From contig NC_088301.1 of the NCBI RefSeq assembly GCF_032854445.1, forward strand, positions 29,498,402 through 29,562,401: 64,000 bases of DNA, in the 5' to 3' direction. The stretch is from Liolophura sinensis. Taxonomy: Eukaryota; Mollusca; Polyplacophora; Chitonida; Chitonidae. The notes under the pieces are model-generated. The model was not told where the DNA came from. It made no database searches and saw only the letters and a program-made list of their open reading frames with translations. Below are positions 29,301 to 61,987 of this stretch, one piece after another; the stretch's first letter is position 1; the number at the start of each line of letters is the position of its first letter. Made by a program: the position numbers and the translations under genes.

Positions 29301-32300
29301 GTCTCAGGACATTGGTTTAATTAACGTACATTTCAACTGGGATCTGTTTACGTAGTTTTACTTCACACCCATTTCACAACGAAACATCTCCCCACAGGGT
29401 GTTTGTCAATAAATCAATGTTTCAATATTCTCTAGAGTTCAACAAAAGCCAGCGAGAGTGGAAATTTGGATGAGCTTCAGGCTGTGAGAGATGATGATGA
29501 AGATGATGACAATGATGATGACGACAAAGTTCTTCCTGGGCAGGATATTGATCCAGAGCGTCTGAAGGCATTCAATGTAAGAGTGAAATTAGACAAGCCT
29601 GATTTTTACTGAACTCAAGTAATGCGAGTTTAGCGAAGGAAAGTACATGAGTAGGATTCATTAATTATGGTAACAAGAAAGTACATTCAGTGATTCAATA
29701 TGGGCAAAGTACAGCATATTTGTTACACACATTGCAAGCAGGACAAGAGACATCATTGTATTCTTTGTTAGCAAGATTTCTAATATAGAGTATGAGCTTG
29801 ATATGCATATTTGTGACATGAACATGATCTTGGCCGAAGCATATTTACATCATTTTGTTTATACAGGAAATACAATGCTCATTGGTGTCGTTTAGTGAGA
29901 TCAAGGACTATCTAATTTGCATCTAACTATTGTTAGTAAAAAATATTATACTTGTGGCATTTGGAGTTCGAAAAAAAGAAACAGTGCTTGTAGCATGATG
30001 GTTATCCAACGAATTCATAATTTATAAAGTTGTTATATGCAGGTTCACTTATAAATGTAAAGAATATATGTATGATTTCTTCCGAATGTGCTTGATTAGT
30101 TTACGGTATTTGCAGATGTTTGTGCGTTTATTTGTGGACGAAAATCTGGACAGAATGGTTCCAATCTCAAAGCAACCCAAGGACAAAATTCAGGCTATTC
30201 TTGAGGCATGTGATAGACAGTTTCCAGAATTTCACGAAAGAGCTCGCAAACGCATCCGCACATACTTAAAATCATGTCGGCGAATGAGACGATCAAAGGA
30301 GCAGAACGGATGGGAACCGGTGAGTGGGCTGCTGTTATCATTGCTGGTTAAACGGTTCGAAATTTTTCTTGAATGTCCAGATGAATGTGGACTTACTCAG
30401 TAGAACATGAATGTGGACTTACTCAGTAGGACATGAATGTGGACTTACTCTGTAGAACATGAATGTGGAGTTAACCTGTAGGGCATGAATGTGGACTTAC
30501 TCAGTAGAACATGAATGTGGACTTAATCTGAAGGACATAAATGTGTACTTACTCCCTAGAACATGAATGTGGACTTTATCTGTAGGACATGAGTGTGGAC
30601 TTACTCTGTAGAACATGAATGTGGACTTAATCTGTAGGACATGAATGTGGACTTAATCAGTAGAACATGAATGTGGACTTAATCAGTAGAACATGAATGT
30701 GGACTTACTCAGTAGAACATGAATGTTGACTTACTCCGTAGAACATGAATGTGGACTTAATCTGTGGGACATGAGTGTGGACTTACTCTGTAGAACATGA
30801 ATGTGGACTTAATCTGTAGGACATGAATGTGGACTTAATCTGTAGGACATGAGTGTGGACTTAATCAGTAGAACATGAATGTGGACTTACTCAGTAGAAC
30901 ATGAATGTTGACTTACTCCGTAGAACATGAATGTGGACTTAATCTGTGGGACATGAATGTGGACTTACTCCGTAGAACATGAATGTGGACTTAATCGGTA
31001 GGACATGAATGTGAACTTACTCTATGGGACATGAATGTGGACTTACTCTGTAGAACATGAATGTGGACTTAATCTGTAGGACATGAATGTGGTTTGCCTC
31101 TGTGGACCAGTGAATTAAATAATACATATAGTGTAAAACCAGATCGGCTACGACAGTGTGGTAGTGGGCAAATGATAAAAAAGGAACCGGTGAAATCGGG
31201 CCTCGTGTCACATTACCGCGGATAATTCTTCATGCTTAAGTAGTAGAAACTTATACATACTCTTACATCATGTCTTAAGTAGAATTAGCTAAATGTCTAT
31301 TTGTCCACCAGCAGGATCCTGGCTTATACAGGAATACAGTGTAAAAAGAAACATTATAGAGAGTAAAACCAGAGCAGCGGCGACAGTGTGGTAGCAAAAG
31401 GCGTTTCCATGTAGTCCACAGGGGCAACTTCATTTTATTTTAGAGGGTATTTTCTCCATAAATGACGTCTCATGAGAGCAGCGCGAAATGAACTAAGATC
31501 CAACCGCTTAACTGGTTTTTTTTAGTTCCGTCATACTATACCGTTTAAAGTCTTGGGTCAATCGGTGAGCTGGTTGCCTTAAAATAGTCTGGAAAAATAT
31601 GGGTAGGCACCTGCATTTAGGACTTACTGAAGGAACAGAGCGATAAGGACGTGCCCTCAGACACTACGTTAAGCTGACTGATTGACTAGTGACTGATCCA
31701 CCTCGAATACCGTTTTTTTTTATTACAGTGTATGCACTGTATTCATCTGATTTTGTATGTAATGCATTATTTTATCATGTTACCGTCTTTTGTTATTTGG
31801 TGACGCGTTGCATAAAGAACACAATTGGCAGTATGTCATCGCATTATATTATCCCATGGAATGTAAGTGATGCCCTCTTCCCAATCGCATCATGTTCAGT
31901 TTTATATACATCCACATATTTTTGGAGGAAACAAACTAAATTTTGAAACAGTTACTGAAGAATTCATCTGAAATTATATTTGTATCTACTCCCCCCACCC
32001 TCCTGATTTTGTGACAAATGAAATGTTTCTTTATAGCTAAGACCAACACCGCCTCACCTAACGTCAGCGGCTGCAGAAGGTATCCTGGCACAGGCTTGCG
32101 AGAACGAGAGCAACAATGCCAAGCGGATGAGAATGGGTCTGGACCCTTTACCTGTACGTACCACGCCCTGTAGCCCTCATTTTCCACTCATCTTAGGCCA
32201 CCATTAGAAATATGTCTGTTGGGGATACTCAACCGATTCTGCAAAAAAGGCCCCACTCGAAATTTGTATTTTGACTTTTGATGGAACTTGAATTCCACAG

Positions 32301-44254: not shown

Positions 44255-44606
44255 ATGGCCGAGGGTTCGCTCAGGAGTTCAATCCAAACGAAATCATCGG
44301 TGGGACAAGACAGTTCAAGCCTTTCGTCGTCGTCCTCCGCCCAGATTTTTGAGTTCACGTGGGCAGAGGAGACGTACCGTCTTTCGGATCTAACCGGACA
44401 AGATCAATTCCCACGTGTGGTCAACTTGGAGCCAGATGAGGGCGTTGAAATAAGTTATGGGCTTCGTCCCTACCTAAATCAACCCGTTATCTTGAACCAG
44501 TGTGTCAGTAAGCGTGATGTCAGTGCAAGGACGGTGTACCGTGATAAGACAACCGGGAAATACTTTGAGGTGGGACAGACTCTGCTTATACCAGATAGCT
44601 ATGAAG
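44255..44606 (+). CDS. CABIT-like paralog 1, exon 1 (117 codons + 1 nt)
   Basis: It ends CTTATACCAGATAGCTATGA-AG before a GTAAGA donor, in phase 1. The frame runs on into the intron as a proline run (poly-C) but that is intronic: splicing gives SYE-G-WFEIV, matching the second paralog. The N-terminal Ser-rich tract contains [11 protein letters not shown]. Confidence 0.8.
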
Positions 44607-47111
44607 GTAAGACAGGTGTGCCCCCCCCCCCCAACCTCCCAGGGGATTCATGCCCAGAATATGGTGGGGTGAGGAGTGGAGGTGGGAGGTGTCATGATAT
44701 TATTGCAGTAGGTAGTGGATGACGATCCAAGGTGAAGGTTATTTTTTCGTGGCTATTTAATCATTGATTATAACCCCAACTGTGCAAAATCATGCATATA
44801 TGCATGCATGTATATGTTTTCTTTTTTACATGAATATTTATATACGTATTTATTTGACTGGTGCTTTACGCCGTAAATATGAGGGCGGCCAGCATTATGG
44901 TGGTAGCAGAACCAGGCAGTGCCTGTTCTAACCGAGTATGTGATAGTCCCATTTTAAAAACATGTACTCCCAAATTTCCTTAGCTGTAGATGGGCTGATT
45001 ATGGTAGATTGGTTGCGTATAGCTCTCATATTCGCCGATTGGCCTTTGATCAATAAAATCCAGATGGCAGCTTTACTCCGAGCGCTTGGCTTTATTTCAT
45101 CTTTCAAGCTGGCTTCAAAATGACAAATTTTGTGTTGTTTTGGAGAAAAAATAATAACACAAAAAATCAGTAAATCATTCTTCAAACCGATGGATTAAGT
45201 ATAACTGCGTTGATTAACTGTATCCTATATGGTCCTACATCCAAGTGTCTCATGCATGTGCCTATAGTCATGATTCTGTTCAGCAATTGTCTATATTTTC
45301 CTGGGGTTTCGTTACTCTTTTACGGGCTCTAGACTTCAGTTGTTCACAAATGGTTGAGTTAAGCTATACAATGCAATCATATACATACATAACAATGAGG
45401 GGGCCTCCGAGGCTCAGTCGGTTAGCACGCTAGCGCAGCGTAATGACCCAGGAGTCCCTCACCAATGTGGTGGCTGTGAGTTCAAGTCCAGCTCATGCTG
45501 GCTTCCTCTCCGGCCGTACGTGGGAAGATCTTCCAGCAACCTGCGGATGGTCGTGGGTTTCCCCCGGGGTGTGCCCGGTTTCCACCCACCATAATGCTGG
45601 CCGCCGTCGTATAAGTGAAATATTCTTACTTTTACGAGTACGACGTAAAACACCAATCAAATAAATAAATAAATAAATAAATCATAACAATGAAATAATG
45701 TTATTATTTATTACTGGTATTTGAGATGACATGAATTGATATGACAATATCTCTGTAAATCTACATGAAAATCTATCTGTTTACAGTTAGGTGTTAGGAA
45801 TGTCGAATGAAATTTAAGGAGAAGCACTGAACGTAAAGTGATAAATGACAGTATTGTTGCTATATCTAGTTAGAATCTGTGCCAATCATCAGCTGCATTG
45901 TGTTATCTGTTCTGTGAATTCGATTGCATTTGTCAGTTTCAATGGCTTAATGATATCTATACGACAAGGCCAATGCCAAATAACCCCAATATACACACCT
46001 CTGCATATAGTATGCTAATCATGAAGTATGTTAAGCTTGGATTGAAATTAATGACCGAGCAAAACTATGACTCATTATTTACTCGGTGTTCTTCAAAAAC
46101 TGTTCTTATTGTCAATCAGACTTCATACATGTTTCTTCTGGTTGGCTGTTAAACAACACATGTATTCTGTGCGGATATGCGACCTTCACTTATGGGGCTC
46201 ATTCACGTAAAGTAATTAGCCTCACAGCTCCGAGCCTGGACACTTTGACCGATGAGCTCACAGGCCCTCGCTAGTTCGGCCGCGGCTTTAATACAGGAGG
46301 TTTGTCAGGTACCTAGGGAAGGGTACATGATATGGAATCCAAAATGCATCTAATAAATCGCTTATATTTTGAAGGTCAAAGTGGTTTAAATTCCCTTGAA
46401 ATTGGTTTTTCATCCCATGTGACGTGTACTCTAAGCGTCGGTGACTGACTGGAATCGACTGGTCTCTTGTGAGATATAATGCTTGGCAAATTAATTAATT
46501 AATAAAATGCAGCGATGGGGTAAAACACTAATCAAATAAATAATAAATAAATAAATAAATAAGTAAATAAAATTCAGTAACTCGGTTTCTTCAGCACGTA
46601 CATCCGTAAGAGTAGATATTTCCCTTTTCTTGCAGGTTGTACATATATAATAGGCATGCTAACTATAAACCGGTTTGTGTCACATATACATACATACATA
46701 TGTAACAAGTTGAGTTTTCGGATGTGGTGACAAACAAGAAAACCTTCTTGATACTCTACATTGGTGTAGAAACGATGAACTAAATTGAAAAGGTATTCTT
46801 GTGAGGGTTTTTTTTCGTTACATTCATACATATTTTGCTAATAAATACATATATTACTATGTATCATTACTTTTGTTGCTGACGTTAAGCAAAGCATTGA
46901 ACTGAACACCCCCAGCATTCCAGTACATACGACGCAAACCTGGCTGAGAGTTTTTCTCACGGCAGGAATATGTTTTTTGCAGAAATTCGTTAAATTTGTC
47001 TTGTATGCATGTTTCATAGATTTGTAAAACTGGTCATGTTACTTTTTTTCCCACCTAGATGTTAAGCAACACCAGCACATACATACATATATGTATGTAT
47101 GTATATATGTA

Positions 47112-47185
<74 letters not shown>

Positions 47186-49054
47186 CGTGCGTGCGTGTGT
47201 GCGTGCGTGCGTGTGCGTGTGCGTGCGTGCGTATTTACGTTGTTCCTATAGTGAGCCGCCATTAATGATATTTATTTATTACGATGTTTTACGTCGTACT
47301 AAACTATCAATTATGTTTCAATTATACGGCGAGGGCCAGCGTCATTTATCAATTTAAATTGGAGGTGAGATTCTACACAACTATTGTTACAGCACTGGTT
47401 GTGCATGACTATTGTTATAGCACTTGTTGTGTTCGACTATTGTTACAGCACTGGTTGTGCACGACTATTGTTACAACACTGGTTGTGCACGACTTTTGTT
47501 ACAGCACTGGTTGTGCATGACTATTGTTATAGCACTTGTTGTGCTCGACTATTGTTACAGCACTGCTTGCACACAACTATTGTTACAGCACTGGTTGTAC
47601 ACGACTATTGTTATAACACTGGTTGTGCACGACTATTGTTACAACACTGGTTGTGCACGACTATTGTTACAGCACTGGTTGTGCACGACTATTGTTACAA
47701 CACTGGTTGTGCACGACTATTGTTACAGCATTGGTTGCACACAACTATTGTTACAGCACTGGTTGTACACGACTATTGTTACAACACTGGTTGTGCACTA
47801 CTATTGTTACAGCACTGGTTGCACACAACTATTGTTGCAGCACTGGTTGTGCACGACTATTGTTACAACACTGGTTGTGCACTACTATTGTTACAGCACT
47901 GGTTGTGCACGACTATTGTTACAGCACTGGCCGTGTACTCTGAATGAAAGCCTTTAGCGGAGTATACTATTGACTGTATAAGTAACTTGTCGAATTTAAA
48001 CTCCAGGGGATCCCCAGAGAAAAATATTCACATAAGAAATCCATTAAAGGATTAATTTTTCATCATACCACCAAGATTTTATCGTGAGTTCTTTTCTTTT
48101 ACATCTGTTTAAGGTTGGTTCGAGATTGTCCCTCCTTCGTTTGGGCGAGCAGAATTTTACAGTTCTATTGAACAGGTTGCCAAGGCCATGCCCCGGAAGT
48201 TTTTCACCAGGAATTCAGTGGGTGGCATCATCGTAACCAAGACTAAAACTGGTGAGACGGTTTACAAAGAACGAAAAGTTCCTGCTGGTGTGATACTAAA
48301 AACTGACGGTCTGTTTACAGCTCAATGGAAGACCGAAACACAGTCAGGTTTATTTAAGCGTAAGGAGAAACAATACGTAACCAGGGAAATCCAATACTTG
48401 CGATGTTACACCCCAGATAGACTGGAAATCCTGATACCTTTTGAGCACTCAGGCAAGTTTAACGCTGTTTATGACCGCGACAAAACAACGGAAACTTCAC
48501 ACTCTATCTACAGGATGAAAGATTTAATCGAAAGCTGTACATTTCCCATGATGGTGCGCCTGATATATGGTAAAGCTCCTGTAGTGCCTTGTATTTTTAC
48601 TGGTCTCCTTGCTATTAAAGATTGTCAGAAACGCGACACTGTCATCGGCAGCACCATAGTCAATAAACGCAACGTGCTTTTCGAGCTACCGGTTGATACG
48701 TTTTGCAATGTCCAGTTGTCATCAAACGATGAACAATTTTCGACACTAACGGGATTCAGAGACGCTCGGAAGCTGTGTAAGAAATATGCCGTGTCCTTTG
48801 CAAGCATGATCAAATTGTCACCAGATATGGACACTGATAAAGAGTTGAAGGAGTACACACCGAAAAAAACTTCGCAAAGTGATAATTTACAGTCTCTAGA
48901 TTTAATCAAGGACATGAATATCGCTGATTCTCCGAGAGAAGAGATGTTTGAAGCGGACGGTTCCGGTGAGGTTGAGGAAGATAGTGGAACAGACGGTGAC
49001 AAAGTGTTAGAGTTAGCCAAAGACGGAGAAAAGAAGGAAGAAACGATGTGTTAG
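44255..49054 (+). CDS. CABIT-domain-like (THEMIS/GAREM-type) protein, paralog 1
   Basis: Join 44255-44606 and 48114-49054, 430 residues. The start ATG has A at -3 and G at +4. Residues 1-30 are Ser-rich and probably disordered. From about 33 the pattern is FTWAEETYRLSDL, FPRVVNLEPDEGVEI, then FEVGQTLLIPDSYEG-WFEIV, SIEQVAKAMPRKFF, EILIPFEHSGKFNAVYD and SIYRMKDLIESCTFPMMVRL. An all-beta body with a PRVV strand near the start, a helper segment before 'WF', and a LIPFE..GKF motif with a 'y.mkdli...fP..V' element resembles CABIT modules of THEMIS and GAREM proteins, which act in receptor and phosphatase/GRB2-linked signalling. The last 60 residues are acidic (EVEEDSGTDGDK). No proline-rich GRB2 site is evident. 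The family call is by fold pattern, not search. Confidence 0.7.
44848..44932 (-). mobile_element. SINE 3' fragment
   Basis: Minus-strand tail and part of the body: TATTTATTTGACTGGTGCTT, ACGCCGTAAATATGAGGGCG, GCCAGCATTATGGTGGTAGC. The head is missing. Confidence 0.8.
45399..45682 (+). mobile_element. Full-length SINE with target-site duplication
   Basis: It starts GGGGGCCTCCGAGGCTCAGT, with an A-box-like GGCTCAGTCGGTTAGC and B-box-like GTGAGTTCAAGTCCAGC. It ends in CGACGTAAAACACCAATCAA and (ATAA)n. The 11-mer CATAACAATGA flanks both sides (45388-45398 and 45683-45693), a perfect target duplication. The insertion is therefore fairly recent. The body carries a short internal insertion (ACTTTTACG near 45630). 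Confidence 0.93.
47116..47235 (+). repeat. (GT)n microsatellite with GC interruptions
   Basis: About 65 bases of pure GT followed by GTGCGTGC-type interrupted units, preceded by ATGT/ATAT repeats. Alternating purine-pyrimidine of this length can adopt Z-DNA. Confidence 0.93.
47370..47937 (+). repeat. 28-bp minisatellite, about 20 copies
   Basis: The unit is ACTATTGTTACAGCACTGGT plus TGTGCACG. Since 28 is not a multiple of three, all three forward frames pass through the array and all stay open, giving 28-residue protein repeats (for example LLLQHWLCTTIV). The frames start near the array and have no splice context, so no gene is called. The array ends about 175 bases before the paralog 1 acceptor. 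Confidence 0.95.
48114..49054 (+). CDS. CABIT-like paralog 1, exon 2 (312 residues)
   Basis: The acceptor is CTGTTTAAG and the first codon is completed as Gly, followed by WFEIVPPSFGRAEFYSSIEQ. It ends in TAG after ETMC. The exon carries most of the beta-rich body and the acidic tail. Cys residues lie in LRCYTPDR, ESCTFP, VPCIF, KDCQKR, TFCNVQLS and ARKLCKKYA. A CABIT module is known for a conserved Cys, but I cannot say which one corresponds. Confidence 0.85.
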
Positions 49055-49156
49055 CTGGATCAGGGATCAGAGGCGCCTGCATGCCTTTTTAATCGTTAGG
49101 ACATATGTGCCTTCAAACTCAATGATGGACAGTGGGTTTATAGATAGCCCCTACTC

Positions 49157-49808
49157 CGTGTTCTGTGAAGTAACTTGCAAGAAATTGATTCTAGTCACAT
49201 GATGTAATTCAGTTACGTAATTTGTTCTGATGTCGGTTATTCCAAACTTACATATGATCAAGGCACGAAGGATCAATCTCTACATGAAACAAGAAGGCCA
49301 AAGATGACATTTTTATACTTATCTCGATCTACATTATAGTTGAGTGTGTTGCCCTAATTTAGTAACTGAGACGGAGTTGTCTCCCGTGGAATAGGTGCAG
49401 TACGTTGTTTGCATTTTATAATTTGTTTCTCTGAGTAATATGACCAAACATCCGTAATTATTTTGTCACTACGAAGAAGATATTATTTAAGCAGTCGACC
49501 AAGCTATATACTTGACTCGTTGGGGGCTTAAACGCAGACATTACAGGAGTCAAGGCCAATTGATACAATCTATTGTTTGAACAGTCAACAGCATAACAAC
49601 TTTATGTATAAACTGTAAATCTCTAAAACAAGTGGAGAGGGAATGACTTTTTCCGGAGAGGGCATCAGCAAGTCGCGCACAATGGACTAAAACACTGTCT
49701 ACCCATGGTTCTGTGCCCGCTACTGCATTTACTTCCGTTTCCTGACGTGATCTTATGTTTATATTGGTAAGGAGGAAACGTCCGAGTGTATAATCATGCC
49801 ACGGGGTG
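49157..49808 (+). repeat. Duplicated block, copy 1 (A+B), downstream of paralog 1
   Basis: Part A (49157-49299) matches 49872-50013, sharing ATGTAATTCAGTTACGTAAT and ACATATGATCAAGGCACGAA. Part B (49303-49808) matches 52100-52728, sharing GAGACGGAGTTGTCTCCCGT and TTTATATTGGTAAGGAGGAA. In this copy A and B are adjacent. The block starts about 100 bases after the stop codon, so it may include the 3' UTR. Confidence 0.9.
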
Positions 49809-49871
49809 GATCAAGTAGTGTTTTAGGAAGAAAGATACAAGTTGGGCAATTGAAAATATACGTGTACATTA

Positions 49872-50013
49872 CGTGCTCTGTGAAGTCAATTGCAAAAAAT
49901 CGATTCTAGTTACATAATGTAATTCAGTTACGTAATTAGTTCTGATGCCGGTTATTCCAAACATACATATGATCAAGGCACGAAGGATCAATCTCTACAT
50001 GTAACAAGCAGGC
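49872..50013 (+). repeat. Duplicated block, copy 2 part A'
   Basis: It matches 49157-49299 over about 140 bases with scattered substitutions. Its continuation, part B', lies about 2.1 kb further on. Confidence 0.9.
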
Positions 50014-50290
50014 GGAAGAAGTATTTTTCTTTCAAAATCTAACAATGAATGAATTTCAAACATTTGAATTCGTTTTGCAGCCTTTCTGCAAGATCGCCAT
50101 CCAAGTTAGGCGAGGCAGGAGATGATTCATTTCATTTGGGAGATGTACATATACAGTTACAAGAAAATTCCAAATGTTTATTACCCCAGTGAAATAACGT
50201 AGTAGAAAACAGCATAAAGTGAATATACAACCAAGAGAGCCTGGATATCTATAGTGATCTTTGACTACTCTGGTAAAGACCGACAACACA

Positions 50291-50467
50291 CTATTCTGTT
50301 AAATATAAAACACATACTCTATTAATTCAACATAATCATTCTATTAGACTAACAGGATATCATGTTGAATATGACACTGTTTTATGTTATAATGACAGAA
50401 TACATTCTAGCATCATTTAGACAACAGATTTTGCTGTTAAAATTAACAGGTTAATTTTTTGAGTGCA
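50291..50467 (-). mobile_element. MITE copy (palindrome-ended family)
   Basis: It matches the reverse complement of 57015-57245, sharing ATTCAACATAATCATTCTAT, TTAGACTAACAGG and GACACTGTTTTATGTTATAA. The right end keeps GCTGTTAAAATTAACAGG, the subterminal palindrome. The left end has a shortened version. Confidence 0.75.
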
Positions 50468-51783
50468 CAACTGGGCCGCAGAGTCTGCAGGAATGAGTCT
50501 GATAATTTCTGAAGCGCAATAATGACACAGCGACAATTACCAACTTTTTCAGGCCATGTAAAGTGTTTATTAACTATATATGCCTATATAGTGCTGTTTT
50601 GGTTTCGTACTTTGTTAATTTTCCAAATTCTTGATTCTTGAAATAAAAAACTTGCCTACTCGTATTGGATTCTACCTGCTGTGAATGATATCCTCTGTGA
50701 GGCATCAGGTCGCACTAAGCACTGAGGCTTCGATGGGTGTGACTTCCATCGTATAAAGCCGAGATTTCACACAATGTGATTTGTCGCATCGATTAGTCGA
50801 ACTCGACAAATGGAATGAAAATGTGACAAGGCTATTTCATTAGCCTCAGTCGGACGATGTTATTCGTCGAGTGCTATACAGTCGCATGGAATAGCTCAGG
50901 TCTTGTTTTCATTAGATTAGTCAAATTAGATAGGTCGAGTCGAAAATCGCAACGTGCAAGCGCGACAGGATTAGCTCTCTTAACTTTGCGAGCTCGTAAC
51001 TGCAACAAGTCGTGTGGCGTTAAGTTGTCATGGCAGTTACGTACTTGTGCTTCGTTAATCTGGCCCCGGGCATACGTAACCTACCTCGACAATTTACATC
51101 ACACGCTTTCCATTCTGGGACACTTCATTATTTATTAAGGCGCAATTTGTTGGGTGTCAACAACTTTTCAGGATTGGTCAAACCCAGGTCGGATCATACC
51201 AAAGACTTTAGAAATGGTACTTATTGCTCCCTCGCTTTGCGATCAGGACTAGTTGGCCCGGTGGTTGGCCCTGTGTCAGTATAATGTGACTGGGTGGGGT
51301 GTCATGTCTGGCGTCTTCGGCATGATACTTCAGTGGCGGCAGTACTTGACGGCATGGACTCGCCCTGCCACAAGGAGACACAGTATATGTACACATACCT
51401 AGTGACTCCTCATCATCATATGACTAAAAATGGTTGAGAACGATGCTAAACCTCGAGCACTCATTCATTCATCCATTCCTTTAGAACTTGTTTGGTTCCA
51501 TGTTCCATGAACTTTAGTATTAATGTGGTGGACTGCATACACAACTTTTTTCTTTACAAGCTCGAGCCAAGTGTGAAGGATGAAGATTTTACCTTCTCCA
51601 GTTTACACCATTTTTTGCAAAGTTTTCATAAGAACAATTTTCTTACTAGGGTGAAACCAGATACATCCTACATTAATTATTTATTATGAAATTTAAGTAA
51701 CACAAGTGGACTGCAGTCCACAACCCATTCGTTATAATGTGAATCTGCGCGCGTGGCTAATATATATTGTAGGAGAGATATCT

Positions 51784-52046
51784 ATTTATGTATCTATTTA
51801 TTTGACTGATTTTTTACGCCGTACTCAAGAATATTTCACTTATACGACAGCGGCGAGCATTATGGTGGAAGGAAACCGGGCAGAGCCTGGGGGAAACCCA
51901 CGACCATCCGCAGGTTTCTGGAAGACTTACGGCCGGAGAGGAAGCCAGCATGAGCTGGACTTGAACTCACAGCGGCGGCATTGGTGAAAGGCTCCGTGGT
52001 CATTACGCTGCGCTAGCGCGCTAACCAACTGAGCCACGGAGGCCCC
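51784..52046 (-). mobile_element. Full-length SINE with target-site duplication
   Basis: Read on the minus strand it goes from GGGGCCTCCGTGGCTCAGTT (A-box-like) through GTGAGTTCAAGTCCAGCTC (B-box-like) to the TTTTTTACGCC-type tail and A/T repeat. The flanks GAGAGATATCT (51773) and GAGAGATGTCT (52047) are a target duplication with one mismatch. It lies in the stretch between A' and B'. Confidence 0.9.
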
Positions 52047-52099
52047 GAGAGATGTCTACAATGTATTTTTGAAATTTATACCTACCTACGCCTATGGTA

Positions 52100-52728
52100 G
52101 ATGACATTTTTATACTCATCTCGATCTACATTATAGTTGAGTATGTTGCCCTAATTTAATAACTGAGACGGAGTTGTCTCCCGTGGAATAGGTGCAGTAC
52201 GTTGTTTGCATTGAGTAATATGACCAAACGTCCGTAATTATTTTGTCACAACGAGAAAGATATTATTTAAGCAGTCGACAAAGCTATATAATGGACTTTC
52301 AGACATTACAGCATTACAGGAGGCAAGGCCAATTAATACAAGCTATTATTTGAGTCTTGTGACTCAAGTCAACAGAAGTACGGCATTAAACCCCAAGCAT
52401 TCACTCACTCCCTCACTCACTCTAATCAACAGCATGACAATATGTATGAATTTTAAACTGCAAATCTCGTGTTTCCCCGTGACCAATAAATTTTCAAACA
52501 AGCACAGTGTTCTAATCTGCTGACTTCTGGATTCATACTACAAACAAGTGGAGATGAAATGATCTTTATCCGGCCAGAACATCAGCAAGTGGCACACAAT
52601 GGGACTAAAACACTGTCTACCCATGGTTCTGTGCCTGCTTATGCATTTACTTTCGTTTCCTGACATAACCTTATGTTTATATTGGTAAGGAGGAAAACAT
52701 CCGAGTGTATAATCATGTCACGTGGAGC
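52100..52728 (+). repeat. Duplicated block, copy 2 part B'
   Basis: It matches 49303-49808 but is longer. Inserted parts include a fragment of the second SINE family in minus orientation (TACGGCATTAAACCCCAAGC, 52380-52428) and a stretch with CCAATAAATTTTC at about 52485 that copy 1 lacks. The match resumes at AAACAAGTGGAGA and ends near 52728. Confidence 0.9.
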
Positions 52729-55700
52729 CAATCAGAGTTTGCTTATCTCATACGTATAACTGTTGTAATCTTTTTAGGCTCCCAAACTGAAAGCTCAGTC
52801 GGAATCCTCTTGTTCTTGCTCGAAATATTAAAATTATTTTTTTCTGACAATCTTTTTTGTTTTGCTTCTAGAAAACTGCAGATCACAGCTGTGTGAAATT
52901 TAGCAATAAATTTCTCTCTGATATTATCTCAAAGGTTTCGTCTAGGCATCTTAGTTTAGCGGCCATAATGGGTTTCGAAAAAAGTTACCATCTTTTTTTA
53001 TAAAGAAGCAAGTAGATCATTAATACATACCAGCTTATACGAGTTCGAAAACGACAATAAAATCTGTCAAAAACTTTAGAAACTGGACATTGGTTCAATA
53101 TATGACGAATATTCACTATATGAATTTTATGGATTCCAGTGTATTTTGAGACGGTGATGTGGAATATGTTTTGCTTCTGTTTGCAGCTTGAGATATAGTA
53201 TAAAAAACTATACTTTTAGGGTTCACAATGCATGTGTATCTTACTATAAAAGCATCGCTTTGTTGATGAAGGAACAATAGTACGGAAACTGGTGCTGATC
53301 TGTACTGAAGAAGATGGTGAAAACAGTTCGTGCGGAGTCCTTTGAAGCCGCGAAACTGCAGGCGGTCCTAGTCCCGCTGCCAACTTGTCCGGCTACGTTC
53401 TAAAAAGGTGTACAAGAATCTTGTCCACTACAGTTTGATTTTCACAGAGATGCTCTCGGAAAGGCACAATGCACATATGGCACTGGGGATAAAGATTGGT
53501 GTCAAGCAGTGCGAATTAGCTCGGTCAATGATACGAGTTGAGTGTGTCAAAACTGTGGTCGCTGTTACAAAAAAATGTGGCCTGTAGGTCATCTAGGTGA
53601 GCATAAAGACAGCAAAGCTTCGATTTTGCCCCTTGCCCTCTTATCACATGCAGAGCCAACGAGACGTATTTGTAAGAACAGATGTCGCACCAGCCATTTT
53701 GAAGGATATGTAAACAATTTTATTTTGCTTTTACTTTTAATACGCAACAAACGCTTGTGTCATTTTAGCCACAATTTTGTTTTCATTTAGATTCTTTTCA
53801 CCTTCTTTTGTAAAACGAAATGTTGTGTCGTATGGAAATCTGACCTAGCTGTCCTCTGGATGTAGCGGTTAACGTGATACCAGGTATGAGTTAGACTCGG
53901 AGTTTACTCGCGGGTCTATGAGTTGCTGTGGTTAGTCGCGGGCTATGGATCTATCTTGGTAATGATGAAACTGCTGGTGGCGATCCTCAAACAAAAGTGA
54001 AGAAGGTTGGATCCTGTTCTAGGGAAAATTACAAAGGAAACGGTTGTCAGCCAATTGCTACATTGCTCCTTTATTCGTTTTGTACATTGGAACATATGCC
54101 ATCATTATCCCAACCATCTTCTGCTGTTGGGTGGGGGGGGGGGGGGGGGGGGGGATAGAGAGTGGAGAGTAATGCGGGAATGTCTTCCAGCAGAAGTCAA
54201 ACAGTTAAACTGAAGTGGCAATAAAAACGATTGCTAACAAGTCAAACAGCAGTTCTTGTTTCCTTAGAGAGAAAAACTCAGCCCTAGGCGATATCGGGTT
54301 AAAAACATAGAGGAGTACCCTATACCCAAGGGAGACTGGGAAAGCGAGTCCCTTAGTCCCACCTGACTTTTTCGTGTTACATACAATTGATAACGTCATC
54401 CATTAATAAGATAGCTTGAGGAACTCTTACGAAGAAGGCTTACAACGCCTTAAGCGCTCGTGTTTGCGAAATAACGACGGGACTCTGCTGGATTAGAACT
54501 CTATTGTCGCTAAGCGTGCATGTGCTGGTCAGTCTTAGTCTTTTGGCCCTCCATGATTAGGACCATATTGTACGATAAGTTGAGCTGAGTTTAATCCTTT
54601 CTTAAGCCCTCGTGTGTGCCGAGCTTATATGCGACCATATATCTGTATAAAGTCCTCTTCGCATGCATTGTCACTCAAGACGTGAAGACACAAAACAGAA
54701 GTGGCATAATCTGAGTAGATATACAAATTATTTACTTATTGAAGTGCTGGATATTTAATTTATTTACATATATACCGAAAACGGGTACCGGTCGTCGCAT
54801 TTAATCAAGAATATCTTGTTCTAGAGAAAACTCCAATGTTGAAATTAAATTGTTGAGCAATATAGTGTGTCGTGAGTTTTTTTTTTAAGAATTTACCAGT
54901 CAGTTATACATGTGGCACGTTTTGTAATTCCTACATAGATTTGTTGCAATCAAGTCCTCAGTATTATTTCATTTATACGACTGTAGACATTTTTATGGGG
55001 GGTGGAAACCAGAGTGCTGGTCAGTAAACGGAACATTTTTCCCACATGTGATGTACAGATGCACGCAATATTGAAGGAGGACCAGTCATTGGCAACATCT
55101 GTAAGACTACATACGCCTATATAAGAGCGCCATCGGCCGCTTGCCGTCATCAAGCTTCTATAAAAGTTGTCGAGGCGGGGAATCGCGTGGGACTGAACCA
55201 ACCCCTCGATCGTTTGTCCTCACGATTGGGGGATTTTGCGAGGCTTTAATGACTCAATAATAGTGAATACCATGCGGAGTGACATAAACACACAGACAAT
55301 TGCTATCCGTTTGTAGTGATTTATTTTTGAGTTTATTACAGAAAAGTAACAAAAAATATAAATTCGGATGTCTTTTGAAAATGCAGTTCGAAATCTTCCC
55401 AGGCATTATTTTGAGCTATTTACTTACATGATATATATATTACGATATTTTATACAAAGCAAAACCATGAAATATTTTACAAAACACATCAGTGTATTTC
55501 ATGGTTGTATAAACATCATTAATTATAATAACTAAATTAATAATAATAATAAGAAGAAGCAGAAGAAGAACAACAACAACAATAAGTTCCTGAACCGCAA
55601 GGCTATTACAAATAAGTCCATAACCATAATATTTAGAATTCGGAATCCCACATCAAATATAACATAACCGGTGTTTATTGACGTCTTATTCATATACATG

Positions 55701-57014
55701 TATTTGTAACAGGAATGTTAGTAACTTGTTCTGCCTCCGGTGTATTATTAGTTTCTGACAACTGCTACAGAGACCTGTTAGTGCATGCTCTAACAATAGT
55801 CTAACCCAAATTATTATATGTTTTCTGACAAACTGTCCATCAGGCATACGTACTTTGGCATAGGTGGAATTCTGGCTTTATTTACATTTCGCCGTAATTC
55901 CCTCGCGCCTGCTGAAAAGGACGCCGAAAAATCCCAATCTCTCATATTCACTACAGCTTATCCTTTAGAGGCTTTCTTTTATTTTGGCTATATCTCGATT
56001 TTAACCTGAAAGGCTAGCATCTGGTGTTGAGATTATTGTCGATAGGCTGCTATGAGCTCTAACCTCAGAGATTTTAATACTGAAGCTTGCAAGCTTTCGT
56101 ACGTCTGACAACTTCATTATTGAGTAATATTGACACTGAAACACTTTCAAATCAGAAACACATCATTATAATAGATGACAATATTATACATACTACACGT
56201 GGGTACCAGTGGTTCCACAATAAAAAGTTGTTATGCCTAATGCACAGTGGCACCTTTTGCGTGTATTTTTACCGAGGCTAACCTTAGATAACAAACATGC
56301 CAACATACAAAGATAGCATACAGTACACACATGTATGCAGCTTAACGTCTATTTGCTAGGCTCACCGAATAAATAGAAGTTATGGTCCATATATATCTTA
56401 TGTTATGCAACCCAACTTCTGAATACAATTGAAAGAAGTCATACAAAGACAACACTACGAAACCAATACCATACTGATTCAGAGTACTATGCCAGCCAGC
56501 TATAGAAGGTAGAGAACATATTCGGAAGAAAAGTTACTTTCTTCTTAGTTTTAGTGTAATCACTGTTATTGGTTGTTAAGGATCTGCTCATATCAGCACT
56601 GACGACAAAGCTATGCGAAACCATTCTCAAGTCACTATGTAAGAGAGTTAAATTTAAATACAAGATCTCAAAATATGGAGATCGCTTTTGGAAGTTACCC
56701 TCTTTTAAAAATATATATAAAATGTAAAAAAAAATGATATAAAATATTAACAATAAGATTAAAGAACTTAACCTAACATGTAATAAACAAAATGTTTGAT
56801 TTCCACTGGATAAATAATTTAGCATTTTTAATAAGGTTTACCTGTAAAACAACGAGAATGAATTACTACTGTTATGAGCATTCAGTTTTAATTACATGAC
56901 AGTTGCACGTGACAGAAAATCGGTGTCGGGTTAGAGTTTTACTGACAGACTGAGCATGTTTCATGTATTATACTCTCCCTATACTCGCAGCGCACAATGA
57001 CTAGTTACAGTATT
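52729..57014. other. Intergenic region between the CABIT-like paralogs
   Basis: No gene is supported. A decayed SINE piece lies at about 54960-55020 (TTTCATTTATACGACTGTAG, GGGGGGTGGAAACC), a poly-G run of about 22 at 54133-54154, and an AT-rich, low-complexity region of AAT/AAG triplets at 55530-55585. A short GC-richer stretch near 53290-53420 has no recognisable frame. Confidence 0.6.
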
Positions 57015-57245
57015 GTAGCTCAAAAATAGTCTGTTAATTTTAACAGAAAGACCCTAGAATATATTGTTACTATAACATAATGCTGTGTCACATTCAACAT
57101 AATATTATGTTAGCCTAATACAATCTTTATGTTGAATCAATAGAATTCGTGTGCTATATTCAACAATAATCTGCAGCAATGATAGAAATACATTCTAGCA
57201 CCACTCAGACTTTCTGTTAAATATAACAGATTGGTTTTAGAGCAC
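57015..57245 (+). mobile_element. MITE with subterminal palindromes (best copy)
   Basis: The left end GTAGCTCAAAAATAGTCTGT-TAATTTTAACAGAAAGAC and the inverted right end GTGCTCTAAAACCAATCTGT-TATATTTAACAGAAAGTC are imperfect terminal inverted repeats. Each contains a TCTGTTA..TAACAGA palindrome able to form its own hairpin. There is no coding capacity. Two further copies lie at 10186 and 50291. Confidence 0.75.
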
Positions 57246-57306
57246 TTTTCCCCCTTAATGTTTAGCTAACGATCCCGTTTCTAAACAGCCTTATTGTCTC
57301 GCTTTG

Positions 57307-57509
57307 GCGTTTTACTGCTAAACTGGACCTGTCCAATTTACCTAGCTTTCACTCTGTAGCTCTCCTTCGATTTGCTCATCAGTAGAAGTGCTGTATTTGT
57401 AGCTATACACATCTAGGCAGGTGCCCCTTCATTGTATTACTTTGTATGACATACTATTCCATGGTGCCTTTGTCGATTAAACTTAAAATCGTGGTGGTGG
57501 TGTAGATCG
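57307..57509 (+). repeat. Dispersed direct repeat, copy 1
   Basis: It shares AGCTTTCACTCTGTAGCT, GCCCCTTCATTGTATTACTT and GTGGTGGTGGTGT with 60842-61027 in the same order and orientation, at clearly less than full identity. It may be an interspersed repeat family or an old duplication. Confidence 0.75.
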
Positions 57510-57944
57510 CTCTTTGACTATACCCGAAAGTATGCTCTGCAGCAAAGACCATCAGTACTGTATCTAGCGCTTGAACAAAGAGGTCGGCTAGTTGATTCCA
57601 CCTGAATGACTTTGATGTCAGGAGAATTGGTGGGTAACTGGAGAGGTGCTTTGTCTAGTGTTCTTCACTCCTCCAGCTGACCACCGTCATACAACTCACA
57701 CAGCCTTCTGTTTCGCGATAAATGGAGTCAAAATAAATCAATATCAGCGAAAAGACTAGATTACTCGACATCTTTGTGAAAGTATATAGTGTACTATGTA
57801 AAGCTGGTATAACAAGGCATCGCCACACAGTACTGTGTAAAGCTGGTATAACTTAAACCATCGCGACACAGTGGCTGTTTTCTTGACGCATATAAGTCTT
57901 ATATATGATGTGATATGTTTTCCAATATTGTCATTGAGGGGAAA

Positions 57945-58157
57945 TTCTTACCAATGCGGTCGCTGTGAGTTCAAGTCCAGCTCATGCTGGCTTCCACTCC
58001 GGCCATACGTGAAAAGGTCTGACATCAACCTACCGATGGTGGTGGGTTTCCCCGGGCTCTGCTCGGTTTCCTCCCACCATAATGTTGGCCACCGTCGTAT
58101 AAGTGAAATATTCTCGAGAACGGCGTAAAACACCAGTCAAATAAATAAATAGATAAA
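57945..58157 (+). mobile_element. 5'-truncated SINE copy
   Basis: It starts inside the head (ACCAATGCGGTCGCTGTGAG, then TTCAAGTCCAGCTCATGCTG) and runs to ACGGCGTAAAACACCAGTCA and AATAAATAAATAG. Confidence 0.88.
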
Positions 58158-59473
58158 TTGAGGGGAAACATCTAGAATCAGCAGAAATAGAAGCATATGC
58201 ATTCATACATTATCTTCACTATATACGTTTATTCATTCTGTACTTAAAACTGATAACATCTGTGACACCATGCAGGAGCCTTAAGTTGCTGATGTGGAAG
58301 TCCTCTAGAAATTTCTAGTACACTTGTTGCACCCGACATAAAACGGGACCACTGCATCTTGTACTGTTAGCATCAAGTGGATTTGACATAGCCATGATGA
58401 CAGTTTATATAGTTTGTATCTACATTCTGTTTAGGTTAATGTCATTTCTCTTTTCCAAACCCTCCGTCGTGCCAAATGTTCTATCATTTCGTAAGTTTGT
58501 TTACTTTATCTAAGCCTTCCTGAAGAATGAGTCACTTCGTCTACAGCGATGAAGTGGATGCATATGGATTGAAAATACCATGGCGCCTGTCCGCATGCCT
58601 AGGCATGAATACACGGGCTTAGTGGTCAGAACTGACACAGAAGCAGCCTACACACCTTCATAATGTCCGCCGTTCTCTCATGCTTCGTTGCAGTATAATC
58701 ATAGACCAAAAGGAGCGGTGCTTGTAATTCCTCCGAGTTACAGGTTAATCAAAGCTAGGTCATTCTGTGACCTCACGTCTGCAGATCGACTTTAGTCGGA
58801 TACTCTCATTGGTAACGACAGATTCTTCCCTTTAGCACTTTATTGGTTAAAATGTTCCACATATTTGAATTAAAACCAATATGCCAGTCAGCCCTGAATT
58901 AGATAAAATGATGACCTCTGGTGTAGGGCAAGAATGAGCTTACACAGTGAAGGAAACAAGGTCTTCCACGCCCAGCTCCTTCTTCAAATTCGTGAAACAT
59001 ACCCCGCAAGAAAATGTCTGTAAAATTCATCGTTGTCGGGAAATCTTGTTTCATTAATTTTCAGATGACATCCTATTATAAACATGTCGGCGTCAAAGGT
59101 AACCTAGTGGATTTTTAGATTAACGGAAGAGGTAATACCCTGTATCAAGACGACATTCTGCCATTCGCACATATCAGAGGCAACAAGATAATAATTGTTG
59201 TACATTCCTTCAAAAGGACAGTGTTAATTCCATACACACAGTGAAGACATTCCTAACTGATTATTACCGCTGAGGGAAAGATTCTACCAGCTGTGTGTCC
59301 ATAAGGGTAAACTGAACATTCTACATGGAGTCATTTAGTGTAATGGTTGTTTACAAATTATATTGTCAAGTCTCAATGTTGAACTCAGCCATCAGTATTG
59401 TGGAAAGGGGACGTCAATTCATCTGCTGATAATTTACACGACATTGCATTCTTCTCAGCGTTCACCAAGGGCT
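58158..59473. other. Region downstream of CABIT-like paralog 2
   Basis: No gene was recognised. It lies 3' of the minus-strand paralog 2 and probably includes its 3' UTR. I could not place a convincing minus-strand AATAAA signal. Confidence 0.55.
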
Positions 59474-60207
59474 TTATGAAGTTCCATTTGTTAGCGGCTT
59501 GTACGTGATCTTGGCAAGAAACTTGTCCACGTGGCTGTCAGCAAAAATCAAAGTTTTCCTTAAAGCCTCGTGACTTTTGGCCGGTGGGGTCTGGACTGCT
59601 CTTTGATATTTCACCTCTGTGTGTAACGGTAACTCAATCAACTGATTCCCACGGGAGTGAAGAGTGCATGCTACGACGGCATTGAAGGGCACAGTTTCCA
59701 ACAACTCAATACTATTGTCTTGTTGTCGCTTGGTTTTCTTTGTGAACTTAAGTTCATTCTTGTCACCTATTGGATATACTCTTACCGGTAACTCTGTTCT
59801 TGTAAGGACCTCCTTCACTCTATGTACGCTTACGGTATCATACGCATCGGTATGGCGATTTTTCCCCAGGTCTACAATGTAAAATTGCCCCTCTTGTTTA
59901 ACTCGCAACAAAGCAATTTTTCTGCTGCTCGTAGAAACCTTCAAGAACCTTTCCAGCTTTCGTTTGACCTTCCCTCTCAGATTGCTATATTTGATGTAAC
60001 CTTCGTACATAGAGTTCACTGTCAAACACTCATTACCGTCAATGTGACCTTTGACATAATCGGCGCCGTTCTCGGGTCGTGACAATTCGTAATAACATGT
60101 TATCTCCGTGCACGTAAGGAAAACACGTGGCATGATTTCCAGCACTTTGGAAATCGACCTAATGCCATTAACCTGGTCAGGAGAGTTGCTTTCAAAAGTG
60201 AACCAAC
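59474..60207 (-). CDS. CABIT-like paralog 2, exon 2 (243 residues)
   Basis: The acceptor on the minus strand is CTTATTTTTTACAG, followed by GT-TGG-TTC (completing Gly, then Trp-Phe). It begins WFTFESNSPDQVNGI and ends in a stop after NGTS. Intron phase and the Gly-Trp-Phe junction are identical to paralog 1. Confidence 0.85.
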
Positions 60208-61987
60208 CTGTAAAAAATAAGACAAAGATATGCTTTAGTAAACAGCAGTGTCATTTCCCATGTGAGTTCATAGATGACAGAAACAATAAAATATGACAGG
60301 GGCACAGGCAAGACATTGATCATGTAAAAATGACAAATGTTCATTTAATAAAGATGCGGGGTCGGTTTGGTGAAGCAGTCGCTAAACTGCGCCTGGCGTC
60401 ATTTCCATGACAACATACTCTAAAGAGACAAGTTGCCATGGTAAATGCGCTTGGCGCAGCGTTGTGACAGCTTTGTAAAACGGCCCCCCAGGGGATCGGG
60501 TCGTGGTCGAGTATCTTTCAATCTCACGGACAGACGAGGCACAATCCCGGCCTGTGACAGAGCATGTATACATTTACTGCTCTCGCTGTTCGTGTGGCCT
60601 TGTCTTCCACCAAGATGGTGTGTATATCTATACACGTGGGAAGTTCGTGAGTAGCTTGTCTATGATTAACGCTGACCATTCGGATTTCCTCCACCCATAA
60701 ATATGTCCGCAATAGTATAGGCCTAAGTAGAAAATGCTTGAGTTTGGCGATTAACAAAAATCAATAAATAAAACTCAAAATAAACAAAAATAATATTTCT
60801 ACTCCTAGCGAGGTACAATGTAAACAATTTTCCTCACTTTTGGGTTTTCAGTGCTAAATAGGACCTGACCAGCTTACCTAGCTCTCACTCTGTAGCTTTC
60901 CTTTTGGTCAGCTTATCAGCAGAAGTACTGTATAAATCTGGTTACCGTGCCCCTTCACTGTACTACTTTATATGCCATATTTAACAGTGCCTCTAGCTTA
61001 AACTTTAAATAGTGGTGGTGGTGTTGGTGTTCTGGAGGTACATTTATTTATTTGTTTGGTGTTTTACGCCGTTCTCAAGAATATCTGCCTTATACGAAGG
61101 CGGTTCAGAAGCTATACAGAGTCTAGGCTGTTTGTCTTTGAGTTCATACCTTAATATATAGGCCGTTTCTGAGTTGCGGGTCCTTTCAAGTGCTAAGATA
61201 CATGCACCGGTACTAAAGGGGCGTGGCGTAGCCTACATACGTTCACATTGTGATTATGCTTTCATGTGCGACCACACGAACCAGTTCTTAACTCAGTTTG
61301 CTACCCCTTTCTTCTGTATTTTTACGTAAGCCTTGTTGCTTGTGGAATATTTTCATGTCATTGGAGTCATGACACTGAAGATAATGTTTGTGGGCCGACG
61401 GGGAAAATCGCTTATATTTATTGTGGGTCTGACAGCAACCTGCGGATGGTCGTGGGTTTCTCCCGGGCTCTGCCTGGTTTCCTCCCACCATAATGCTGGC
61501 CGCCGTCGTATAAGTGAAATATTCTTGAGTATGGCGTAAAACACCGATCAAATAAATAACTAAATATATTTATTGTCTTTCGTTGATGTTAACTGAGGAG
61601 TGTCATAAGTGAAATATCTGTTTTTGGTATTTGTTAATTTACCAGCAAACAAGTTAAAGAGAACAAACTGTAGAAAAGCAAATATATCAGGGCTATAGCT
61701 TCAAGACATTAATCGCTATGTTTATCTAAGGCAGTATAAAAATAACTGAACCTACCCTTATATTCCGTAGGTATGAACGCTAGGCATTTTTCAGACGGGT
61801 TGGGCGTGGGTACACGGGCTAAAACTCGACTTCCGGAGACATCCCTGAAAAGGACCAGGATGTCTTGGGACGGGTCTGTATGGCCACTCCCATCACGGGC
61901 TGCCTTTATCACCTGCGGTAGGAATTCCGAGGATAAAATCTCCTTGATCGTCTGTGGTTTATCGTCCCATATAAAAGATGTATCCAT
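59474..61987 (-). CDS. CABIT-domain-like (THEMIS/GAREM-type) protein, paralog 2
   Basis: Minus-strand join 61987-61756 and 60207-59474, 321 residues. The first in-frame ATG after an upstream TGA starts MDTSFIWDDKPQTIKEIL. It aligns with paralog 1 throughout: FIWDDKPQTIKEIL / FTWAEETYRLSDL, LPQVIKAARDG / FPRVVNLEPDE, FIPTEYKG-WF / LIPDSYEG-WF, SISKVLEIMPRVFL / SIEQVAKAMPRKFF, and VHRVKEVLTRTELPVRVYPI / IYRMKDLIESCTFPMMVRLI. It lacks the Ser-rich N-terminus and the acidic tail, and ends in KITYKPLTNGTS. It is more basic (KRKLERFLK, KKTKRQQ) than paralog 1. A role in signalling is inferred from the family only. Confidence 0.68.
60842..61027 (+). repeat. Dispersed direct repeat, copy 2
   Basis: Counterpart of 57307-57509; shares AGCTCTCACTCTGTAGCTTT, GCAGAAGTACTGTA and GTGGTGGTGGTGTTGG. 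It lies in the paralog 2 intron and touches the SINE piece at 61040. Confidence 0.75.
61040..61107 (-). mobile_element. SINE 3' fragment
   Basis: Minus-strand tail ATTTATTTGTTTGGTGTTTT, ACGCCGTTCTCAAGAATATC, then TTATACGAAGGCGG. Confidence 0.8.
61427..61562 (+). mobile_element. 5'-truncated SINE copy
   Basis: It begins CTGACAGCAACCTGCGGATG, passes GGTTTCCTCCCACCATAATG and ends GGCGTAAAACACCGATCAAA with AATAAATAAC. It lies opposite in orientation to the host gene. Confidence 0.88.
61756..61987 (-). CDS. CABIT-like paralog 2, exon 1 (77 codons + 1 nt)
   Basis: It encodes MDTSFIWDDKPQTIKEILSS, FLPQVIKAARDGSGHTDPSQ, ILVLFRDVSGSRVLARVPTP and FIPTEYK, then one base before the GTAGGT donor. The frame is open for 29 more codons upstream with no ATG, so a 5' extension by splicing from another exon is not excluded. 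Confidence 0.78.

What the first reader, a model, noticed from the sequence alone, without database searches (positions are those of the whole stretch)
44255..61987. Tail-to-tail pair of diverged CABIT-like genes with the same intron
Two genes on opposite strands, about 10 kb apart, encode proteins that align along their length and share a phase-1 intron at the same Gly before Trp-Phe. The family looks like CABIT (THEMIS/GAREM), which in vertebrates works in T-cell and growth-factor receptor signalling. Paralog 1 has a Ser-rich N-terminus and an acidic tail; paralog 2 has neither and is basic. A linked pair in a mollusc-like animal, without T cells, may represent an uncharacterised signalling or immune expansion. 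The homology of the two is visible in the sequence; the CABIT call is from fold-pattern memory.
Basis: partly seen in the sequence, partly recalled or inferred. Interest (0 to 1): 0.75.

Follow-up and report, generated by a model that had tools for sequence, protein, structure and literature searches.

The report
Two stripped-down GAREM-like CABIT genes
Two neighbouring animal genes encode shortened relatives of the growth-factor signalling adaptor GAREM, one of them without the cysteine that gives the domain its name; they look like old members of a small family spread along one chromosome rather than a new immune system.

Summary
Both exon joins are canonical GT-AG, phase 1, in a Gly before Trp-Phe; the genes lie tail to tail, 10.4 kb apart, encoding 430 and 321 aa. 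Gene 1 is a CABIT protein by Pfam (E 1.3e-14); gene 2 falls below the cut-off (E 0.0038). An exon 2 profile made only from CABIT genes elsewhere in the genome finds both (2e-45 and 2.9e-14; next-best window frame 0.71). The genome holds at least ten CABIT loci, eight on the window's chromosome. The Gly|Trp-Phe acceptor occurs in all six GAREM-like genes found, so it marks the family, not this pair. Gene 1 scores 106.8 bits with a GAREM-like gene 17 Mb away and 12.5 with its neighbour. Two relatives keep a SAM domain whose best PDB match is 2dkz; neither window gene has a SAM or Pro-rich region. Of eight aligned rows only gene 2 lacks the core cysteine (Val). Best reading: old GAREM-branch paralogs reduced to the CABIT module. 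An immune role is untested. No transcripts, structures or other species could be checked, and the phylum was not established.

The parts
44255..44606 (+). Gene 1 exon 1: Ser-rich N-terminus and first part of CABIT
   Evidence: open frame from ATG to GT donor; exon 1 profile from three relatives outside the window finds it at E 1.1e-9
44607..48113 (+). Gene 1 intron, phase 1, 3,507 bases
   Evidence: GT-AG, same place as in five other GAREM-like genes
48114..49054 (+). Gene 1 exon 2: rest of CABIT, acidic tail, stop TAG
   Evidence: Pfam CABIT over protein residues 79-325; profile without window genes E 2e-45
61756..61987 (-). Gene 2 exon 1: first part of CABIT
   Evidence: second-best of 1,704 window frames with the exon 1 profile, E 0.0048
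60208..61755 (-). Gene 2 intron, phase 1, 1,548 bases
   Evidence: GT-AG, homologous place
59474..60207 (-). Gene 2 exon 2: rest of a diverged CABIT, basic, core cysteine replaced by Val, stop TAA
   Evidence: profile without window genes E 2.9e-14, next-best frame 0.71; column read
30101..30298 (+). NOL4 exon (HTH_NOL4_2nd), the only match in the genome; neighbour of the pair
   Evidence: PF23079 E 2.8e-36; one match in the genome, C7:29528502-29528699

Best explanation
The two genes are old, strongly diverged members of the GAREM branch of the CABIT family. They sit on a chromosome where that branch has several local pairs: two genes at 12.7 Mb, two at 22.8 Mb, and this inverted pair at 29.5 Mb. 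Each is reduced to the CABIT module: no Pro-rich Grb2 site and no SAM domain. Mechanism (inferred, not shown): a CABIT-only protein binds the partner that CABIT modules bind. For THEMIS that partner is the catalytic domain of the phosphatase SHP-1, whose catalytic cysteine CABIT is reported to hold oxidised and inactive (PMC10987373, passages). Without the parts that recruit Grb2, such proteins would tune or compete with full-length GAREM in receptor tyrosine kinase/ERK signalling. Gene 1 keeps the core cysteine and could be an active module; gene 2, without it, would be a binding-only or decoy form. Shown: exon structure, homology, missing domains in the reading frames seen, lost cysteine, family number and linkage. 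Inferred: branch (from intron and SAM-bearing relatives), partner, sign of effect, pathway.
For: Joins and open frames. Pfam CABIT for gene 1. Profiles built without the window genes rank their exons first and second of 1,704 window frames, clear of the rest. Intron acceptor at the same Gly-Trp-Phe in A, B, C, D and both window genes, 6 of 6; exon 1 found for all six. SAM domains of A and B best match PDB 2dkz (E 1.4e-8 and 5.3e-17); its depositor's name is LOC64762, which I recall as human GAREM1. No significant SAM frame in the window (best E 0.1, 9.2 bits); one Pro-x-x-Pro in gene 1, inside the CABIT, and none in gene 2. Core cysteine in 7 of 8 aligned rows, Val in gene 2. Linkage on chromosome C7 with NOL4, ASXL and two of three places with dystrophin/dystrobrevin-type EF-hands.
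Against: No transcript, expression, protein or structure data. Gene 2 is below Pfam's cut-off; its best outside match in the genome search, gene A, is not significant on its own (18 bits, E 0.25), and its tree position is unresolved with a long branch. The intronless gene G is also similar to gene 1 (50.6 bits), so the limits of the GAREM branch are not firm. The best SAM-like frame of the window, a 28-aa frame with the last part of the domain at E 0.1, lies just downstream of gene 1's stop (49221-49304): probably chance, but a SAM remnant is not excluded. The phosphatase mechanism is reported for two-CABIT THEMIS, not for single-CABIT proteins. In THEMIS, deletion of the Pro-rich sequence abolished Grb2 association and positive selection (PMC3931654, passages), so a CABIT-only protein might do something else.
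Confidence: 0.55

Rival explanations
1. The two genes arose from one local inverted duplication and diverged as a functional pair (sister paralogs).
For: Adjacency; shared intron; direct BLASTP E 2e-8; not rejected as sisters (AU p = 0.34), and together, without support (52/0), in an exon 2 tree of six.
Against: Gene 1 scores 106.8 and 98.8 bits with genes 17 and 7 Mb away and only 12.5 with gene 2; gene 2's best other relative is gene A at 18 bits against 13.9 for gene 1, though neither is significant. The shared intron is family-wide. Gene 2's fast evolution could hide a sister relation.
Confidence: 0.3
2. Gene 2 is a decaying gene or unexpressed relic that happens to be still open.
For: Fast divergence, loss of the core cysteine, Pfam score under the cut-off. 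Codon usage is only weakly coding-like: its two exon frames rank 7th and 13th of 87 window frames of 80 aa or more. Relatives B and D show frame changes in this assembly.
Against: 321 aa open across two exons with canonical splice sites; none of 200 neutral simulations stayed free of stops at similar divergence; the spliced frame scores 0.041, above all but four of the 87 frames, two of which are gene 1's.
Confidence: 0.12
3. The genes belong to an innate-immune expansion of CABIT proteins in this lineage.
For: At least ten CABIT loci, eight on one chromosome; a THEMIS-like candidate lies about 0.33 Mb upstream of the window (L004). THEMIS proteins act in T cells, and Themis2 in macrophages by the title of PMC2903609 (listing only).
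Against: The closest relatives are GAREM-like, and GAREM works in growth-factor signalling (PMC8086153, passages). Copy number is modest, and the six pairs among the four genes compared (both window genes, A, C) are old, 20-33% identical. No expression data.
Confidence: 0.12

Closest known systems
GAREM1/GAREM2 (FAM59A/B)
   Same: One CABIT domain; relatives A and B in the same genome share the intron acceptor and carry a SAM like PDB 2dkz; same chromosome as NOL4, ASXL and dystrobrevin-type genes, as on human chromosome 18 (human order recalled, not checked).
   Different: No Pro-rich Grb2 site, no SAM, no long tyrosine-bearing tail; gene 2 lacks the core cysteine.
THEMIS, THEMIS2, THEMIS3
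   Same: CABIT family; CABIT reported to bind and inactivate SHP-1 (PMC10987373, passages).
   Different: THEMIS has two CABITs, a Pro-rich region and an NLS (PMC3931654, PMC4082722, passages); the window genes have one CABIT and no Pro-rich region. An NLS was not tested beyond noting short basic runs.
CABIT proteins of other animals (family traced to cnidarians per PMC4082722)
   Same: Members of a family already reported to be metazoan-wide.
   Different: I saw no paper on CABIT-only proteins without the core cysteine in the listings; the fullest, listed 10 of 11 papers with 'CABIT' and 'domain'.

Membership tests
CABIT domain (PF12736) | Significant profile match, gene 1 | tested here: met
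   54.7 bits, cut-off 24.
CABIT domain (PF12736) | Significant profile match, gene 2 | tested here: inconclusive
   17.2 bits, under the cut-off of 24; but found at E 2.9e-14 by a profile of four CABIT relatives.
CABIT domain (PF12736) | Conserved core cysteine, gene 1 | tested here: met
   Present (YLRC); 7 of 8 aligned rows keep it. That this column is the published core cysteine is inferred from the motif.
CABIT domain (PF12736) | Conserved core cysteine, gene 2 | tested here: not met
   Val in its place. Gene 2 is therefore filed as a diverged homologue, not as a canonical CABIT protein.
CABIT domain (PF12736) | All-beta fold | not testable with these tools
GAREM | Single CABIT domain | tested here: met
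   One stretch in each protein; gene 2's is under the cut-off.
GAREM | SAM domain | tested here: not met
   No significant SAM frame in the window (best E 0.1), while A and B have one. The window genes are filed as GAREM-branch paralogs, not as GAREM.
GAREM | Pro-rich SH3-binding region | tested here: not met
   One Pro-x-x-Pro in gene 1, inside the CABIT; none in gene 2.
GAREM | Gly|Trp-Phe phase-1 intron, shared with the SAM-bearing genes A and B of this genome | tested here: met
   6 of 6 acceptors. Whether vertebrate GAREM has it was not tested.
THEMIS | Two CABIT domains | tested here: not met
   One stretch each.

The most novel reading that the evidence does not exclude
This animal (apparently an invertebrate, not tested) has evolved free-standing CABIT modules, one with and one without the signature cysteine, as an active/decoy pair that sets SHP-type phosphatase activity without Grb2 recruitment: a minimal form of a mechanism described, in the passages I saw, for THEMIS in T cells.
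Probability: 0.08. Interest if true: 0.75.

Novelty: new variant of a known kind. Interest (0 to 1): 0.38.

Why it matters
CABIT modules are known mainly from mammalian THEMIS and GAREM, where they come with a Pro-rich region and, in GAREM, a SAM domain. Natural CABIT-only proteins, one without the name-giving cysteine, would let biochemists ask what the module does alone and whether the cysteine is needed. The chromosome also holds GAREM-like, ASXL, NOL4 and dystrobrevin-type genes; if the recalled human order is right, this linkage goes back to the common ancestor of this animal and vertebrates and ties the window genes to the GAREM locus.

Tried and rejected
Structure prediction for both exon 2 products: switched off, so no fold search was made. 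PDB sequence search with gene 1, with a six-row family profile, and with genes D and G: no CABIT chain. Family tree: no starred branch; sister relation of the two genes neither shown nor rejected. Search for SAM exons beside the genes: nothing significant; the best frame (49221-49304, E 0.1) covers only the last part of the domain. Test of the animal's phylum through the haemocyanin family PF14830 (recalled as mollusc-typical): tried, never answered. Genome search with gene G: not answered. A second CABIT in the THEMIS-like gene H: the whole protein gives two stretches but its second half alone gives no CABIT match, so 'two-CABIT' is unproven. Search in print: 1 paper; 20 of 199 listed; 1; 40 of 219; 5 of 5,350; 10 of 11; 5 of 26; nothing on CABIT-only genes of invertebrates in those listings, several of which are cut.
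Full report
What was claimed and whether it is there. Reading the sequence and splicing at the stated joins gives gene 1, 430 aa from 44255-44606 and 48114-49054 on the + strand, and gene 2, 321 aa from 61987-61756 and 60207-59474 on the - strand. Splice sites are canonical. The 3' ends face each other over 10.4 kb. The charge and serine features are as described. The pair aligns at 20% identity over 255 columns (BLASTP E 2e-8), and over 297 columns when gene 2 is compared with a profile of gene 1 and three relatives (E 7.5e-17).

Family. Pfam CABIT matches gene 1 at 1.3e-14 and 54.7 bits, above the cut-off of 24; gene 2 scores 17.2 bits, below it. Because that leaves gene 2 open, I built profiles from genes outside the window only: exon 2 from A, C, D and G, exon 1 from A, C and G. 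Against all 1,704 window frames of 25 aa or more, exon 2 of gene 1 scores 2e-45, exon 2 of gene 2 2.9e-14, and the next frame 0.71; for exon 1 the values are 1.1e-9, 0.0048 and 1.1. Both genes are therefore homologous to the family along their length; for gene 2's exon 1 the support is modest.

Relatives in the same genome. The window lies at C7:29498402-29562401 of a 609 Mb assembly with contigs up to chromosome size. Searches by Pfam CABIT, gene 2, gene 1, gene C and gene A give ten CABIT loci, a lower bound because only the best candidates are scored: the two window genes; A (C7, exon 1 12.735 and exon 2 12.745 Mb); B (C7, 12.756 and 12.779 Mb); C (C7, 22.785 and 22.793 Mb); D (C7, 22.813 and 22.832 Mb); G (C7, 31.492 Mb); H (C7, 29.165 Mb); I (C12, 22.233 Mb); J (C4, 2.226 Mb). 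Eight of ten are on C7, which is 9.9% of the assembly; local duplication makes these non-independent, so the small binomial figure in that call should not be read as a test.

Intron. The acceptor before Trp-Phe, phase 1 in Gly, is present in A, B, C, D and both window genes, 6 of 6. Clean donors were shown for both window genes, A and C; B has an exon 1 ending Tyr-Lys-Gly with a weak GTTGG donor, and D one ending Tyr-Pro-Gly with GTAAG after a frame change inside the exon. Gene G reads through this place without an intron. The intron thus marks a GAREM-like branch of at least six genes; it is not a private feature of the window pair.

Which branch. Gene A keeps Pro-rich stretches and a C-terminal SAM; the SAM's best solved relative is 2dkz (E 1.4e-8). 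Gene B's SAM matches the same entry at 5.3e-17. The depositor's name is 'hypothetical protein LOC64762', which from memory is human GAREM1. No Pfam SAM model was listed for gene A or for B's SAM piece at E up to 1. PMC4082722 (passages) states that GAREM proteins have one CABIT, a Pro-rich region and a SAM, THEMIS proteins two CABITs and a Pro-rich region. Genes A and B fit GAREM. The window genes share A's and B's intron place and single CABIT but have no Pro-rich site and no significant SAM frame anywhere in the window. The best SAM-like frame, 28 aa at E 0.1, is at 49221-49304, just past gene 1's stop and on its strand; it covers the last part of the domain. I take it as chance but note it. 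C and D show no SAM either in the stretches searched, roughly 4 kb downstream of each. Further exons cannot be excluded without transcripts.

Are the two a pair? Gene 1's scores are 106.8 bits with A, 98.8 with C, 52.5 with D, 50.6 with G and 12.5 with gene 2. Gene 2's best outside relative is A at 18 bits, E 0.25, with gene 1 at 13.9 bits, E 4.3; neither is significant in that search. In a tree of eight CABITs no branch reached the support threshold; forcing the two together costs 2.41 log-likelihood units, p = 0.34; in an exon 2 tree of six they fall together with support 52/0, which shows nothing. Aligned identities are 21.2% gene 1-gene 2, 25.6% gene 1-A, 22.8% gene 2-A, 33.4% A-C.

The lost cysteine. 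CABIT is named for a cysteine, and deletion of the conserved cysteine-containing core in either CABIT of THEMIS abolishes Grb2 association and positive selection (PMC3931654, passages). In an eight-row alignment the cysteine of the Leu-x-Cys motif is present in seven rows and is Val in gene 2. That this column is the published core cysteine is my inference from the motif, not tested against THEMIS itself. Gene 2 is not obviously dead: neutral simulation left stops in 200 of 200 runs (substitutions only). Its codon usage is only weakly coding-like: the spliced frame scores 0.041, but its two exon frames rank 7th and 13th of 87, where gene 1's rank first and second.

Neighbourhood. The window holds the genome's only match to the NOL4 helical domain. 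An ASXL (ASXH) match, partial (50 of 130 positions) and with one stop inside, lies at C7:14.19 Mb and is the only one. EF-hand_2 matches, typical of dystrophin and dystrobrevin, lie at two places on C7 (23.94, 31.10 Mb) and one on C1. From memory, human GAREM1, ASXL3, NOL4 and DTNA lie together on chromosome 18. If so, this is an ancient linkage and supports filing the C7 CABIT genes under the GAREM locus. NOL4 was seen first and prompted the recollection; ASXL and EF-hand_2 were then named before searching. One search gives 0.001 for three families on C7, but as NOL4 was given, the fair figure is nearer 0.01 for two, and weaker still because EF-hand_2 has three places. The human order was not checked here.

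Mechanism. THEMIS CABITs bind the SHP-1 catalytic domain and are reported to promote oxidation of its catalytic cysteine (PMC10987373, passages; the primary papers were not read). The same passages say that other groups read THEMIS as a recruiter of SHP-1 instead. GAREM is phosphorylated after EGF and binds Grb2 through its Pro-rich region (PMC8086153, passages). A CABIT-only protein keeps the first ability in principle and loses the second. I therefore favour modulators of phosphatase or GAREM function, with gene 2 as a binding-only form; homology to the family I hold at about 0.9, this mechanism at about 0.3, giving the overall 0.55.

Verdict. It looks like a lineage of diverged GAREM-branch paralogs rather than a special signalling pair, and nothing here points to immunity. 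What lifts it above routine annotation is the stripped architecture and the loss of the signature cysteine in an otherwise intact gene.

Noticed in passing
window 30101-30298 and C7:29528502-29528699: NOL4 exon, single in the genome, on the same chromosome as GAREM-like, ASXL and dystrobrevin-type genes; suggests an ancient linkage.
   Followed up: partly
window 49221-49304: 28-aa frame just downstream of gene 1 with a weak match (E 0.1) to the end of the GAREM SAM domain; chance or remnant.
   Followed up: partly
L004 319-2265 (-), C7:29.165 Mb: 648 aa single-frame THEMIS-like gene about 0.33 Mb upstream of the window; one clear CABIT, a possible second one not confirmed.
   Followed up: partly
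L030 4727-6739 (+), C7:31.49 Mb: CABIT gene without the Gly|Trp-Phe intron, with Pro-rich tail (671 aa frame), the strongest Pfam CABIT match in the genome.
   Followed up: partly
L024 8523-9901 and L025 1-1032, C7:12.778-12.781 Mb: Gene B, whose SAM is closest to PDB 2dkz, shows several frame changes in this assembly: sequencing errors or decay, not decided.
   Followed up: no
L038 5084-5450, C7:22.813 Mb: Exon 1 of gene D shows a frame change before its donor.
   Followed up: no
window 47369-47947: Minisatellite-like repeat inside gene 1's intron, a few hundred bases after a long TG run (seen by eye).
   Followed up: no
window 45400-45660, 57950-58150, 61440-61570: Copies of a dispersed repeat (ggccagcattatggtggg...) in introns of both genes and between them, SINE-like (seen by eye).
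   Followed up: no
window 12631-13109: Tandem repeat with open frames on both strands reading as short repeated peptides.
   Followed up: no
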